A stretch of DNA of 64,000 bases from an uncultured Poribacteria bacterium (GTDB lineage Bacteria > Poribacteria > WGA-4E > PCPOR2b): the NCBI GenBank assembly GCA_958296125.1, contig OY282444.1, positions 4,001,623 through 4,065,622 of the forward strand, written 5' to 3'. Of the stretch, positions 59,836 to 63,999 are shown piece by piece. Both the position numbers and the translations under genes were made by a program. The notes beneath the pieces are model-generated. The model worked only from the letters and a program-made list of their open reading frames with translations. It was not told where the DNA came from and did no database searches. The stretch's first letter is position 1, and every line of letters begins with the position of its first letter.

Positions 59836-60177
59836 TCATGTCGTTGGAATCGCATCGTATAACGGCGCATTAAATCCAACGAAAAATGTATCTCCAATCT
59901 GTAACGTGGGTGCCCGTAGATTGCCGCTTCTGCCCATAATTGCTTTAAGGATAAGGGCTTGTGAATTGATATTTGGGGCAAAGACCTCAACTTTTTTGCC
60001 TTTAGCGACGTGAATGGATTGAGCCGTTTTGATACGTTCCCAAACCTCGGTTGGATTCAACTTCTCCTTGCGGGCATCCGTTCGACTGTCTACTTGAATA
60101 TTGTTTGCGTCAAGAAACTCTTGCGCTTTTCGACAGGAAGTTCAGCTGTTCCTGAAAAACATCCAATTTACTGTCAT
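59836..60177 (-). CDS. Spx/ArsC-like thioredoxin-fold selenoprotein (UGA read as Sec)
   Basis: The frame from the ATG at 60177 (GGAG 7 bp upstream) reads MTVNWMFFRNS-U-TSCRKAQEF and runs to a final TGA at 59836, giving 113 residues with one in-frame UGA as codon 12 (60142-60144). SUTSCRKA matches the SCTSCRKA redox motif of Spx, with Sec replacing the first Cys. The end has LRAPTLQIGDTFFVGFN, like the LRRP...VGYN end of Spx/ArsC proteins. The part after the UGA alone is open from 60060, so gene callers would call only the tail. It probably acts as a selenol redox protein or reductase. It lies 66 bp after the amidohydrolase gene on the same strand. Confidence 0.82.
60107..60126 (-). promoter_or_regulatory. 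Candidate bacterial SECIS hairpin
   Basis: On the minus strand GCG-CAAGA-GTT-TCTTG-A-CGC folds into an 8-bp stem with one bulged A and a loop starting with G. The loop lies 23 nt after the UGA, inside the distance range known for bacterial SECIS elements. It is inside the coding sequence, as bacterial SECIS must be. Confidence 0.55.
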
Positions 60178-60243
60178 CAACTTTCTCCATTTTTTATTAT
60201 TATCTTTGTATGAGTCAGCAGGAAGATTCACACGCTGCTGCTC

Positions 60244-61452
60244 TTAGTGGTTTGATGTATAGCAAACTTTTCCACCAACAACTGTTAATAGGTTCTCAGA
60301 AGAACTATCAAGAACCTGTTCAATGGGGGGACGACCATCGTTTGGAATTTGGATCGCGATGATATCCGCCTGCCATTCCTTTTCCAACCGTCCGACCTGC
60401 GCTAAACACAGTCCCTTTGCACCGTTATAGGTCACCATATCGAATAGCGTTTCAGGGTGGATACACAGTTGGGTACGTGCGAGGAATTTCAACTCATCGA
60501 GTAGACTCAGGGACCAATTGCTTGCCAGACTATCGGTCCCGATAGTGACATTGATTCCCTTTTCAACTAGTCTCACAACGGGGTGGTCGGTATGATAGAA
60601 GTAATGGTGGCTCCGCGGGCAAAAAACCACAGATGCGCCACTCTGCACAAGCAGCTCCACATCTGCATCAGTCAGGTAGTTACAGTGGACTAAGAGCGAA
60701 TCCTTTCGCAAGATGCCCAACGTTTCCATATACTGTATAGGTGTTATTTGCGGAGGGTGCCACTCGGCTGTTGAAATGCCAAACGCTTCTAGGTAATCTA
60801 AAAATGCACCCGTACCGCTGGAGAGAAACTCAAGCTCCTCCTCGGTTTCCGCTATATGGGTGCAAACTGACAAGTCGGACGTAACGCATTGACGATAAAT
60901 ATCAGCTGATGTAGAATAGGGAGCGTGTGGCGACAGCGCAGGTGTCAACAACGAATCGGGAACAGGGGGAGCCCCCAAATATGTCGCAAGTCGAGCGAGC
61001 CCCATGGCGGCGCGTTCGCCGGAAAAACCGAGTGCCTCAAAGAAAACCATCTTCCGAATCGGAGTATTCCGCAGAATTTGCACGGATTCCCCGGTTCCGT
61101 CGATATCTCCAACTGTTGTCGCACCACCGGCTAAACTTTGCTGCACCCCTTCGCGAATAGACGGTTCTATTGTTGAGGGGTTTCGCTTCCCAACAATTTG
61201 GAATATCCAATCGATAAATTTGGGGGTGCGTTGAATGGAATCGGCACTGCTTGTCAGATCAAGGTGGGTATGAGCATTCACTAAGCCGGGCATGAGCACC
61301 GTTTCGCCGAAGTCGCGTATCGGGGGTGAACCGCTGTTCCGAACTGTCGGGTAAAAGCCGACATCGACAATCTGTGAGCCTTGAATGGCAACCGCGCCAT
61401 TTTCGATAATCGTGCGGCTATTTGGTATTACATATTTTGCGCGTAAAATCAT
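60244..61452 (-). CDS. Amidohydrolase family protein (chlorohydrolase/TRZ-type)
   Basis: The 402-residue protein has the metal motif LVNAHTHLDL (about 61-70), a second His in ALSPHAPYST, HIAETEEEL, LLVHCNYLTD and the Asp in GTDSLASN. It belongs to the cytosine/S-adenosylhomocysteine deaminase-like branch of amidohydrolases, which deaminate or dechlorinate N-containing compounds. The ATG at 61452 fits the MILRAKYVI start of the family; another lies four codons upstream. The selenoprotein gene follows on the same strand. Confidence 0.86.
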   Translation of the reverse strand: MILRAKYVIPNSRTIIENGAVAIQGSQIVDVGFYPTVRNSGSPPIRDFGETVLMPGLVNAHTHLDLTSSADSIQRTPKFIDWIFQIVGKRNPSTIEPSIREGVQQSLAGGATTVGDIDGTGESVQILRNTPIRKMVFFEALGFSGERAAMGLARLATYLGAPPVPDSLLTPALSPHAPYSTSADIYRQCVTSDLSVCTHIAETEEELEFLSSGTGAFLDYLEAFGISTAEWHPPQITPIQYMETLGILRKDSLLVHCNYLTDADVELLVQSGASVVFCPRSHHYFYHTDHPVVRLVEKGINVTIGTDSLASNWSLSLLDELKFLARTQLCIHPETLFDMVTYNGAKGLCLAQVGRLEKEWQADIIAIQIPNDGRPPIEQVLDSSSENLLTVVGGKVCYTSNH

Positions 61453-61576
61453 ACAGAGCCCCATGCGCGAAGCACAAAACGTAGTTAGCTAAGTTGCTTA
61501 GACATATTTTCTTTGAACGGAGATTTAAGCCGCTTTACGATATACAACAACTTCTGCCAACAAATAAGGAAATTCC

Positions 61577-63163
61577 ATGAATGCCAAGATTACCGGGCAT
61601 GCAACCTCACAAGCGACACAAGCCTTCGCCGATCGGATGAACGCGCACAACCCTTCCTTTGAAGCGAATGCGTATCGCCGGCTCACCGGCACGGACCTGA
61701 TAACATCCAAAATCGGTTACGGCACTTACCGCGTGCATAACCGAGACGAGACACACATTGAAACGCTGGAATCGGCAATCGAAGCGGGGTGTAATCTGAT
61801 TGATACCTCCAGTAATTACACCGATGGCGGTAGCGAAACTTTAATAGGTAATGTCCTACAAAAGAAGATTTCTGCCGGCGAGGTTAAGCGGGAAGAAATC
61901 ATCGTTGTATCCAAAGTCGGCTACATGCAGGGTCAAAACCTCGATCAAGCACAAGATCGAGAAACAGCAGGTAATCCGTGGGGAGAGGTTGTCAAATATA
62001 TGGAAGGTTGCTGGCACTGCATCCACCCCGATTTTCTGACCGACCAGTGGACGCGTAGCACCAATCGATTGGGGTTGGAAACGATTGATGTTTACCTGCT
62101 ACACAACCCGGAATACTTCATGGTTGATGCCAAAAACCGATCCTCCCAATCTAGCTGGGACGTAATTGGGGATACCTTCTATGATCGTATCTACCGCGCC
62201 TTTGTGCAAATGGAACAGTTCGTGGTTGATGGCAAGATTCGCTACTACGGTATTTCGTCAAATACCTTTCCTGCCCCACAAACTGACTTTGAGCATGTCT
62301 CCCTCAATCGCGTTTATGAAGCGGCTGCCAAAGCGGCAGAGACTGTGTATGGAGAACATGCGGTGAGCCACTTCAAGGTGATTCAACTCCCATACAACCT
62401 GCTGGAATCCGAGGCATTGACAGCAGCGAATAACGAGATTGACGGAAAACGCATCGCCGTCCTTGAGGCAGCAAAATCCCTTGGACTCGGCGTTCTCGTG
62501 AATCGTCCCCTGAATGCTTTCAAGAACAATCGGATGACCCGCTTAGCACAATATGAACACCATCCAAACGCCGATTATCCTCGGATGATGTCCTTAGCAG
62601 AAGGCACATTAACCCAAATCGAAACCACGATGGAGCAGACACTAAAAGGTTGGGGAATTTTCGATTCGGTACAAAATCAGGTGAATGTCCATCTCTTTTA
62701 CGATGTTGCCCAACAACTGGGCGAATTTATGTCGCGTGTCCAGGATCGCAATCAATGGGAACAAATCTTACAGCAGCACCTGATTCCACAGATTAATGCC
62801 TATCTGCGGCAGACCGGGATTGCTTGTCTGAATCAACACCAAACAGAATGGGAAGGCTTGCTCGCTCAATATGTAGATGCCCTGAACTCGCTGTTCGCAA
62901 CGATAACGGAAATCTTTAACCGTGTGGATGCGGAGAAGGTTGAACCCATCTCTCAGGCTTTGAACCTACATCTCTCCGATGTTCAGGGGGCGTTAACCCT
63001 CTCTCAGCGGGCGTTGAACTTTGTGACTTCATCGCCGGGGGTGTCCGTTGTGCTGAATGGGATGAAACACGAAGTGTATGTTGAAGATTCGATGCAGATT
63101 ATGGAGGTGCCTGATTTTCCACAACCACTTGCGCTCGTCGAAAGCCTAGCGAGTGAAACATAA
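61577..63163 (+). CDS. Aldo/keto reductase with a helical insertion
   Basis: The 528-residue protein is much longer than the usual 300-340. The catalytic tetrad is visible: Asp76 and Tyr81 in DTSSNYTDG, Lys113 in VVSKVGY and His176 in LLHNPE. Late barrel motifs are also present (KIRYYGISSN, GLGVLVNRPLNAF). About 110 residues (roughly 350-465) rich in Gln, Leu and Asn form an all-helical insert before the end block FVTSSPGVSVVLNGM. AAGGAA precedes the ATG. The role of the insert is unknown; it may mediate oligomerisation. Confidence 0.82.
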   Translation: MNAKITGHATSQATQAFADRMNAHNPSFEANAYRRLTGTDLITSKIGYGTYRVHNRDETHIETLESAIEAGCNLIDTSSNYTDGGSETLIGNVLQKKISAGEVKREEIIVVSKVGYMQGQNLDQAQDRETAGNPWGEVVKYMEGCWHCIHPDFLTDQWTRSTNRLGLETIDVYLLHNPEYFMVDAKNRSSQSSWDVIGDTFYDRIYRAFVQMEQFVVDGKIRYYGISSNTFPAPQTDFEHVSLNRVYEAAAKAAETVYGEHAVSHFKVIQLPYNLLESEALTAANNEIDGKRIAVLEAAKSLGLGVLVNRPLNAFKNNRMTRLAQYEHHPNADYPRMMSLAEGTLTQIETTMEQTLKGWGIFDSVQNQVNVHLFYDVAQQLGEFMSRVQDRNQWEQILQQHLIPQINAYLRQTGIACLNQHQTEWEGLLAQYVDALNSLFATITEIFNRVDAEKVEPISQALNLHLSDVQGALTLSQRALNFVTSSPGVSVVLNGMKHEVYVEDSMQIMEVPDFPQPLALVESLASET

Positions 63164-63201: not shown

Positions 63202-63999
63202 CTACTGAGGGGTGTAATTCCTATTTGGTTTGAGCGCCCCTACCTTAATACTCGCAACCTCTGCCTTTCCAATTTTGGCGTAAGCAGATTTGCTGAACAC
63301 CTGAATTTCCTCTAATCCTGCCCGACGGATTGCGTCCAGATATTGGGCTTCGGGCAGTGCCCCGGAAATACAATTCGCCCAGTTGCTAATCATTGATCTC
63401 ACCCGCTTGGGTAGATGGTTCGCGACGATGTCCGACACCAATAACTTCCCGCCCGGCTTGAGGACGCGATGCGCTTCCCGAAAAACCGAATCTTTGTCCG
63501 GGGCGAGGTTAATCACGCAGTTAGAGATAATCCAATCAACGCCTTCACTTTCAATCGGCATTGACTCAATCTCGCCTAACCGGAATTCAACATTTTTTGC
63601 ATCCGCCGCCTCGGCATTCTTTCGTGCTTTTTTGATCATCTCCGGTGTCATGTCGATGCCAATCGCCCGCCCACTTTCGCCGACGAGTTGTGCCGCAAGC
63701 AGCACATCAATGCCCGATCCTGACCCAAGGTCAAGGACGACATCGCCCTCACAAATGTCAGCGTACATCAGTGGATTTCCACAACCGAAGGAATTTTCAA
63801 CAGCATCGGCAGGGATACTGGAAAGCTGCACATCGGTATATTGGTTCTGATTTGCAAACTCCCCTTTGAGGGAGGTTTCAATATTGATTTCTGTGTCGCA
63901 GCAGTTAGAAGATGAACAACAAACTTCATCGCTTTTTACTAAACCTGTGTAATGTTCACGGACAGCTGCTTTGATCTGCTCTGCGTTGTGGGTTGTCAT
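63202..63999 (-). CDS. ArsM-like SAM-dependent methyltransferase (arsenite methyltransferase type)
   Basis: The 265-residue protein has the Cys-rich N-terminal segment DEVCCSSSNCCDTE (about 25-38), the ENSFGCGNPL block, motif I LDLGSGSGIDVLLAA, IGIDMTPEMIKKA and EAHRVLKPGGKLLVSD, which fit ArsM/AS3MT-like enzymes that methylate arsenite (or related metalloids). It is complete, with its ATG at the window edge (63999), so its promoter lies outside. Confidence 0.83.
   Translation of the reverse strand: MTTHNAEQIKAAVREHYTGLVKSDEVCCSSSNCCDTEINIETSLKGEFANQNQYTDVQLSSIPADAVENSFGCGNPLMYADICEGDVVLDLGSGSGIDVLLAAQLVGESGRAIGIDMTPEMIKKARKNAEAADAKNVEFRLGEIESMPIESEGVDWIISNCVINLAPDKDSVFREAHRVLKPGGKLLVSDIVANHLPKRVRSMISNWANCISGALPEAQYLDAIRRAGLEEIQVFSKSAYAKIGKAEVASIKVGALKPNRNYTPQ

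What the first reader, a model, noticed from the sequence alone, without database searches (positions are those of the whole stretch)
59836..60177. Hidden selenoprotein: an Spx/ArsC-like protein with Sec in place of the first redox Cys
A short frame on the minus strand (60060-59836) ends like Spx/ArsC proteins. Reading back through an in-frame TGA gives a complete thioredoxin-fold N-terminus with SUTSCRKA, matching the Spx motif SCTSCRKA exactly except U for C. A clean ATG with GGAG lies at the correct place, and a hairpin starts 15 nt after the UGA with a G-headed loop. Several independent signals agree, and standard annotation would miss the active site.
Basis: partly seen in the sequence, partly recalled or inferred. 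Interest (0 to 1): 0.85.

Follow-up and report, generated by a model that had tools for sequence, protein, structure and literature searches.

The report
Selenocysteine redox protein in Poribacteria
This is a real gene for a small thioredoxin-like protein that carries the rare amino acid selenocysteine in its active site; it belongs to a selenoprotein family already named in databases and the literature, but what the protein does has not been shown.

Summary
The finding holds up. On the minus strand, 60177-59836 reads ATG, UGA at codon 12, then an open frame to the stop, giving a 113-residue thioredoxin-fold protein with a UxxC motif (S-U-T-S-C-R-K-A). It matches NCBIfam NF041106, 'ArsC family (seleno)protein', at E=2e-35. 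The genome (a Candidatus Poribacteria bacterium) has a complete Sec system: selA-selB-tRNA-Sec in one cluster, and a selD with its own in-frame UGA. The gene is present in 71 of 85 genomes of the phylum; every copy has the UGA and no Cys copy was found. Codons upstream of the UGA are under purifying selection (pN/pS 0.21, against 1.00 upstream of the ATG). The predicted SECIS hairpin, 15 nt after the UGA, shows no synonymous variation in its core across 63 distinct sequences (pS 0.06 against about 0.65 elsewhere). One lower-stem pair has compensatory change, and the hairpin meets the published bacterial SECIS constraints. So this is a genuine selenoprotein, but not a new kind: UxxC 'arsenate reductase-like' selenoproteins have been catalogued since 2008, and NF041106 models this family. 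By sequence and fold it is nearest to Spx and glutaredoxin, not arsenate reductase proper. The best-supported role, which is inferred, is a selenol-thiol oxidoreductase.

The parts
59836..60177 (-). Selenoprotein gene of the ArsC_rel_Se_1 family: ATG 60177-60175, Sec-UGA codon 12, stop TGA 59838-59836; 113 residues
   Evidence: NF041106 E=2e-35; 71 of 85 genomes of the phylum
60142..60144 (-). In-frame UGA read as selenocysteine 12 (first position of the UxxC motif)
   Evidence: TGA in 63 of 63 distinct homologous sequences; Cys10 of Spx aligns here
60133..60135 (-). Cys15, resolving cysteine of the UxxC motif
   Evidence: invariant in the 31-sequence alignment and in 63 distinct sequences
60107..60126 (-). 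Predicted SECIS hairpin: GCG-CAAGA-[GUU]-UCUUG-A(bulge)-CGC; apical loop 60118-60116
   Evidence: no synonymous variation in codons +7 to +11; U-A/C-G exchange at pair 20-37; pS 0.064; fold -8.5 kcal/mol
60185..60188 (-). Shine-Dalgarno-like GGAG, 7 nt before the ATG
   Evidence: read directly in the sequence; similar G-rich stretch in most relatives
60244..61464 (-). Upstream co-directional amidohydrolase (aminofutalosine deaminase/TRZ-ATZ type), 66 nt upstream; same neighbour in the genus only, not a demonstrated partner

Best explanation
The locus encodes a genuine selenoprotein. During translation the UGA at codon 12 is decoded as selenocysteine by tRNA-Sec and SelB, directed by a short hairpin that starts 15 nt downstream inside the coding region (supported by conservation, not shown by experiment). 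The product is a single-domain thioredoxin-fold protein with an Spx/ArsC-like insert, and its Sec12 and Cys15 occupy the positions of the Spx/glutaredoxin CxxC. Inferred mechanism: the selenol of Sec12 attacks an oxidised substrate (a disulfide, peroxide or oxyanion), the resulting species is resolved by Cys15 as a Sec12-Cys15 selenenylsulfide, and a cellular thiol system then re-reduces it. The substrate is not known.
For: NF041106 E=2e-35, over its cut-off. Complete Sec machinery: tRNA-Sec 76.6 bits and ARAGORN anticodon TCA, SelB 370 bits, SelA 601 bits, SelD 370 bits with its own in-frame TGA. TGA at this codon in all 71 matching genomes across four families of the order and in 63 distinct sequences. 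Upstream codons selected as protein: pN/pS 0.21 against 1.00 before the ATG. Hairpin codons frozen: pS 0.064 against 0.61-0.75 elsewhere in the frame, with pair 20-37 changing T-A/C-G/T-G and pairing in 61 of 63. SECIS constraints published in PMC13188914 all met by the fold: loop 3 nt, stem at least 4 bp, G first in the loop, 23 nt from UGA to loop, -8.5 kcal/mol. UxxC invariant together with Arg9, Lys17 and LRAPT. AlphaFold2 model pLDDT 92.4, nearest folds Spx, then ArsC-related proteins, glutaredoxins and NrdH.
Against: No direct evidence of Sec insertion or of activity. The 43-nt stretch alone is not unusually stable (z = -0.7), and the upper stem of the hairpin never varies, so it gives no covariation evidence; only one lower pair shows clear compensatory change. 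No Rfam family matched the hairpin. The neighbourhood does not point to a substrate: neighbours are shared within families, not across them.
Confidence: 0.93

Rival explanations
1. The UGA is a real stop: the gene is a truncated remnant or starts after the UGA (TTG at 60060), and the upstream match is chance or relic.
For: Mechanical ORF calling gives only the 74-aa ORF.
Against: The same TGA is kept in 63 distinct sequences with synonymous-only drift around it, and pN/pS is 0.21 upstream. The region between the UGA and the TTG (codons +1 to +27) is also conserved and holds the second redox Cys. Full Sec machinery is present.
Confidence: 0.02
2. The protein is a selenium-using arsenate reductase (ArsC enzyme), with Sec12 as the arsenate nucleophile.
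For: Literature name 'arsenate reductase-like' (PMC2398784, PMC9312934, PMC13188914); an arsenite methyltransferase gene lies about 3 kb upstream (window 63202-63999, NF008823 over cut-off) in all five genomes of the genus examined.
Against: No Pfam ArsC match in the protein or the genome; profile comparison with E. coli ArsC fails (probability 0.2%); invariant LRAP where E. coli ArsC reads NRP, so the Arg next to that Pro is absent; a second Cys three residues on, as in redoxins and Spx, where E. coli ArsC has CGTS; the arsM neighbour is not seen outside the genus in the 20 neighbourhoods fetched.
Confidence: 0.15
3. The protein is an Spx-like redox-switch regulator that binds RNA polymerase alpha, with a selenenylsulfide switch.
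For: Spx is the best match by profile over full length (E about 7e-4) and by fold (E 2.6e-4); CxxC of Spx aligns with UxxC.
Against: Low identity (about 20%) and TM-score of about 0.5; scores far below the NCBIfam Spx cut-offs (22.4 against 123 bits); the second Arg of Spx LRRP is Ala; the modelled insert contains a beta-hairpin at 54-66. Spx regulators are otherwise known from Bacillota (own knowledge).
Confidence: 0.1

Closest known systems
NCBIfam NF041106 ArsC_rel_Se_1, 'ArsC family (seleno)protein'
   Same: Full-length match 1-107 of 107, 121.6 bits against a cut-off of 85; UxxC; listed as 'arsenate reductase-like protein, NF041106, UxxC, 1 Sec' in PMC13188914
   Different: Nothing essential; this is a member
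'Arsenate reductase 2' (cd03032, UxxC) of the Global Ocean Sampling selenoproteome (PMC2398784) and 'Arsenate reductase-like protein' UxxC, MAM02162.1 (PMC9312934)
   Same: Same motif and fold class, marine metagenome origin; PMC13188914 assigns NF041106 to the entry of this name
   Different: Those sequences could not be fetched here, so direct identity was not computed
Spx (Bacillus subtilis; PDB 1z3e, 3gfk, 6ghb)
   Same: Overall fold and CxxC position
   Different: Sec for the first Cys; Ala for the second Arg of LRRP; shorter C-terminus; different insert; about 20% identity
Glutaredoxin / NrdH redoxins (PF00462)
   Same: N-terminal beta-alpha unit with CxxC-type motif and a Pro-containing loop
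   Different: Insert of about 40 residues; below the Pfam cut-off (20.7 against 22.9 bits)
E. coli ArsC arsenate reductase
   Same: Distant fold class
   Different: No significant profile alignment; catalytic and substrate motifs differ

Membership tests
NF041106 ArsC_rel_Se_1 | Score over the curated cut-off, full length | tested here: met
   121.6 bits against 85; profile 1-107 of 107
NF041106 ArsC_rel_Se_1 | UxxC with Sec encoded by in-frame UGA | tested here: met
Bacterial selenoprotein gene | Complete Sec machinery in the genome (selA, selB, selC, selD) | tested here: met
Bacterial selenoprotein gene | SECIS: loop 3-9 nt, stem 4-16 bp, G in the first two loop positions, 16-37 nt from UGA to loop, MFE <= -7.5 kcal/mol | tested here: met
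   Constraints as given in PMC13188914; GUU loop, 23 nt, -8.5 kcal/mol; conserved in 63 sequences
Bacterial selenoprotein gene | Selenium present in the product | not testable with these tools
   needs mass spectrometry or 75Se labelling
ArsC arsenate reductase | Match to the ArsC family model (PF03960) | tested here: not met
   no match in the protein or genome; control genomes ring
ArsC arsenate reductase | Arg next to the conserved Pro (arsenate binding; own knowledge of the Arg60/94/107 triad) | tested here: inconclusive
   Ala89-Pro90 here against Arg-Pro in E. coli ArsC by motif; the profile alignment is not significant
Spx regulator | Score over NCBIfam Spx cut-offs | tested here: not met
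   22.4 against 123 (NF002459) and 21.1 against 75 (TIGR01617)
Spx regulator | Binding of RNA polymerase alpha C-terminal domain | not testable with these tools
   -

The most novel reading that the evidence does not exclude
An obligate-Sec redoxin, kept as Sec without any Cys version through a whole order of sponge-associated and other Poribacteria, with a modified Spx/ArsC fold (beta-hairpin insert) and a dedicated new substrate or partner, so that it is a functional class of its own rather than an ArsC or Spx variant.
Probability: 0.25. Interest if true: 0.5.

Novelty: new member of a known kind. Interest (0 to 1): 0.33.

Why it matters
It confirms that reading through a UGA by eye can recover a real selenoprotein, and it gives a clean, testable case. 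One short gene is kept as Sec in 71 of 73 genomes of an order, with a SECIS core frozen at the synonymous level and no Cys homologue seen in the phylum. It also shows selenium use as a phylum-level trait in Poribacteria: no paper in the held library contains both 'selenoprotein' and 'Poribacteria'. The function of the family is unknown, which is the open question.

Tried and rejected
Genomic context as a clue to function: 21 neighbourhoods from 9 genera show shared neighbours within families (amidohydrolase, SDR and arsM in the window's genus; Gfo/Idh-type dehydrogenase upstream and an NAD-dependent epimerase-like gene downstream in family f4) but none across families, so no partner is claimed. 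Rfam: no match. PADLOC: no match. One search searched tmRNA (RF00023) by mistake for tRNA-Sec; corrected. G019 (same genus) and G023 (same order) lack the gene, as do all 12 genomes outside the order; a more sensitive search of G019, G023 and three of the outside genomes also found nothing; loss and assembly gap cannot be told apart. One paper search failed on syntax.

Full report
What is there. On the minus strand of the window, an ATG at 60177-60175 preceded by GGAG (7 nt) opens a frame that meets TGA at codon 12 (60144-60142) and then runs to a TGA stop at 59838-59836. Read through, it gives MTVNWMFFRNSUTSCRKAQEFLDANNIQ..., 113 residues. Mechanical ORF calling gives only the 74-residue part from a TTG at 60060.

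What it is. The read-through protein matches NCBIfam NF041106 (ArsC_rel_Se_1, 'ArsC family (seleno)protein') over its full length at E=2e-35, 121.6 bits against a cut-off of 85. Pfam gives only a weak glutaredoxin match below its cut-off. Close relatives come from Candidatus Poribacteria genomes, so the window is from that phylum.

Sec machinery. The genome has tRNA-Sec (76.6 bits; ARAGORN anticodon TCA), selB (370 bits) and selA (601 bits) in one cluster at G000:C1:47917-51463, and selD (370 bits) elsewhere with its own in-frame UGA. SelB scores over its cut-off in 76 of 85 genomes of the phylum.

Conservation. Of 85 genomes of the phylum, 71 have the gene; each match contains exactly one stop codon, a TGA. 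These 71 are all in the window's order (71 of 73); the 12 genomes outside it have no match. Among 63 distinct sequences the TGA is invariant. Codons -9 to -1 before the UGA have pN/pS 0.21, while the stretch before the ATG has 1.00, so the part upstream of the UGA is translated in this frame and under selection as protein. Downstream, codons +7 to +11 show no synonymous variation at all (CAA 63/63, GAG 62/62, CTT 63/63, GAC 61/61 of the codons for the majority residue), pS 0.064 against 0.61-0.75 in the rest of the frame. This is where the hairpin GCG-CAAGA-[GUU]-UCUUG-A-CGC lies. Pair 20-37 is T-A in 44, C-G in 11 and T-G in 6 sequences (61 of 63 paired), a compensatory change; the upper stem never varies and so is not evidence by covariation. 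The fold gives -8.5 kcal/mol. The constraints of the bacterial SECIS model as printed in PMC13188914 are met: loop 3 nt, G first in the loop, 23 nt between UGA and loop, energy at or below -7.5. The 43-nt stretch is not unusually stable against shuffles (z -0.7), only the 24-nt core is (z -2.8), so stability alone would not have been convincing. The selD UGA of the same genome is followed by a comparable hairpin with an AGUU loop.

Protein. An alignment of 31 relatives has invariant Trp5, Arg9, Sec12, Ser14, Cys15, Lys17, Gln19, Lys37, Trp46 and the block G-R-x-G-x-L-R-A-P-T. The AlphaFold2 model (Cys in place of Sec; pLDDT 92.4, pTM 0.86) is a thioredoxin-type fold with an insert that contains a beta-hairpin at 54-66. 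In the PDB the nearest folds are Spx (E 2.6e-4 to 7e-4, TM about 0.5), then ArsC-related proteins, glutaredoxins and NrdH. A profile search by sequence likewise puts Spx first, E about 7e-4. Cys10 of Spx aligns with Sec12. E. coli ArsC gives no significant profile alignment, no Pfam ArsC match is found in the protein or the genome, and the Arg-Pro of E. coli ArsC corresponds by motif to Ala-Pro.

How it probably works (inferred). Sec12 and Cys15 form a UxxC redox pair. The selenol attacks an oxidised substrate, Cys15 resolves it as a selenenylsulfide, and a cellular thiol system recycles the protein. I put this general redox mechanism at about 0.7, arsenate reduction at about 0.15 and an Spx-like regulatory role at about 0.1. 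That it is a selenoprotein at all I put at about 0.95. The Best explanation confidence (0.93) refers to the selenoprotein claim; the enzyme mechanism is the less certain part. The neighbourhood does not resolve it: an arsenite methyltransferase gene lies about 3 kb upstream in the window's genus, but neighbours differ between families.

What is known. UxxC arsenate-reductase-like selenoproteins were reported from the Global Ocean Sampling data in 2008 (PMC2398784, 'Arsenate reductase 2', cd03032, 42 sequences with Sec), were listed in 2022 (PMC9312934), and NF041106 is in the 2026 catalogue (PMC13188914), which says that functions of nearly all such families remain uncharacterised. The present gene is therefore a new member of a known kind. 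The held library has no paper with both 'selenoprotein' and 'Poribacteria', but that library is incomplete.

Verdict. Observation confirmed, interpretation supported, novelty modest.

Noticed in passing
G000:C1:47917-51463 (locus L053:7914-11503): selA-selB-tRNA-Sec cluster, all on one strand in that order, followed by mutL; outside the window but in the same genome.
   Followed up: partly
L058:1498-2421 (G000:C1:1302552-1303472): selD of the same genome has an in-frame UGA (TCGU at residues 8-11 of the stretch read) and a hairpin with an AGUU loop about 10 nt later; SelD is itself a selenoprotein here.
   Followed up: partly
window 63202-63999: Arsenite methyltransferase (NF008823, over cut-off) upstream on the same strand as the selenoprotein gene, kept in five genomes of the genus but not in the other neighbourhoods fetched.
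   Followed up: partly
L067-L079 (family f4, genera g8-g11): In family f4 the selenoprotein gene lies between a Gfo/Idh-type dehydrogenase and an NAD-dependent epimerase-like gene on the same strand, in places with overlapping or near-overlapping ends, so probably an operon.
   Followed up: partly
G019 and G023: Two genomes of the order have no detectable copy: G019 (same genus, 95% complete, 260 contigs, selB present) and G023 (80% complete, no SelB over cut-off); loss or assembly gap.
   Followed up: partly
window 61577-63163: 528-residue protein with an aldo-keto-reductase-like N-terminus and only weak family matches (best E 1.1e-9), divergently placed between arsM and the amidohydrolase and conserved in the genus.
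   Followed up: no
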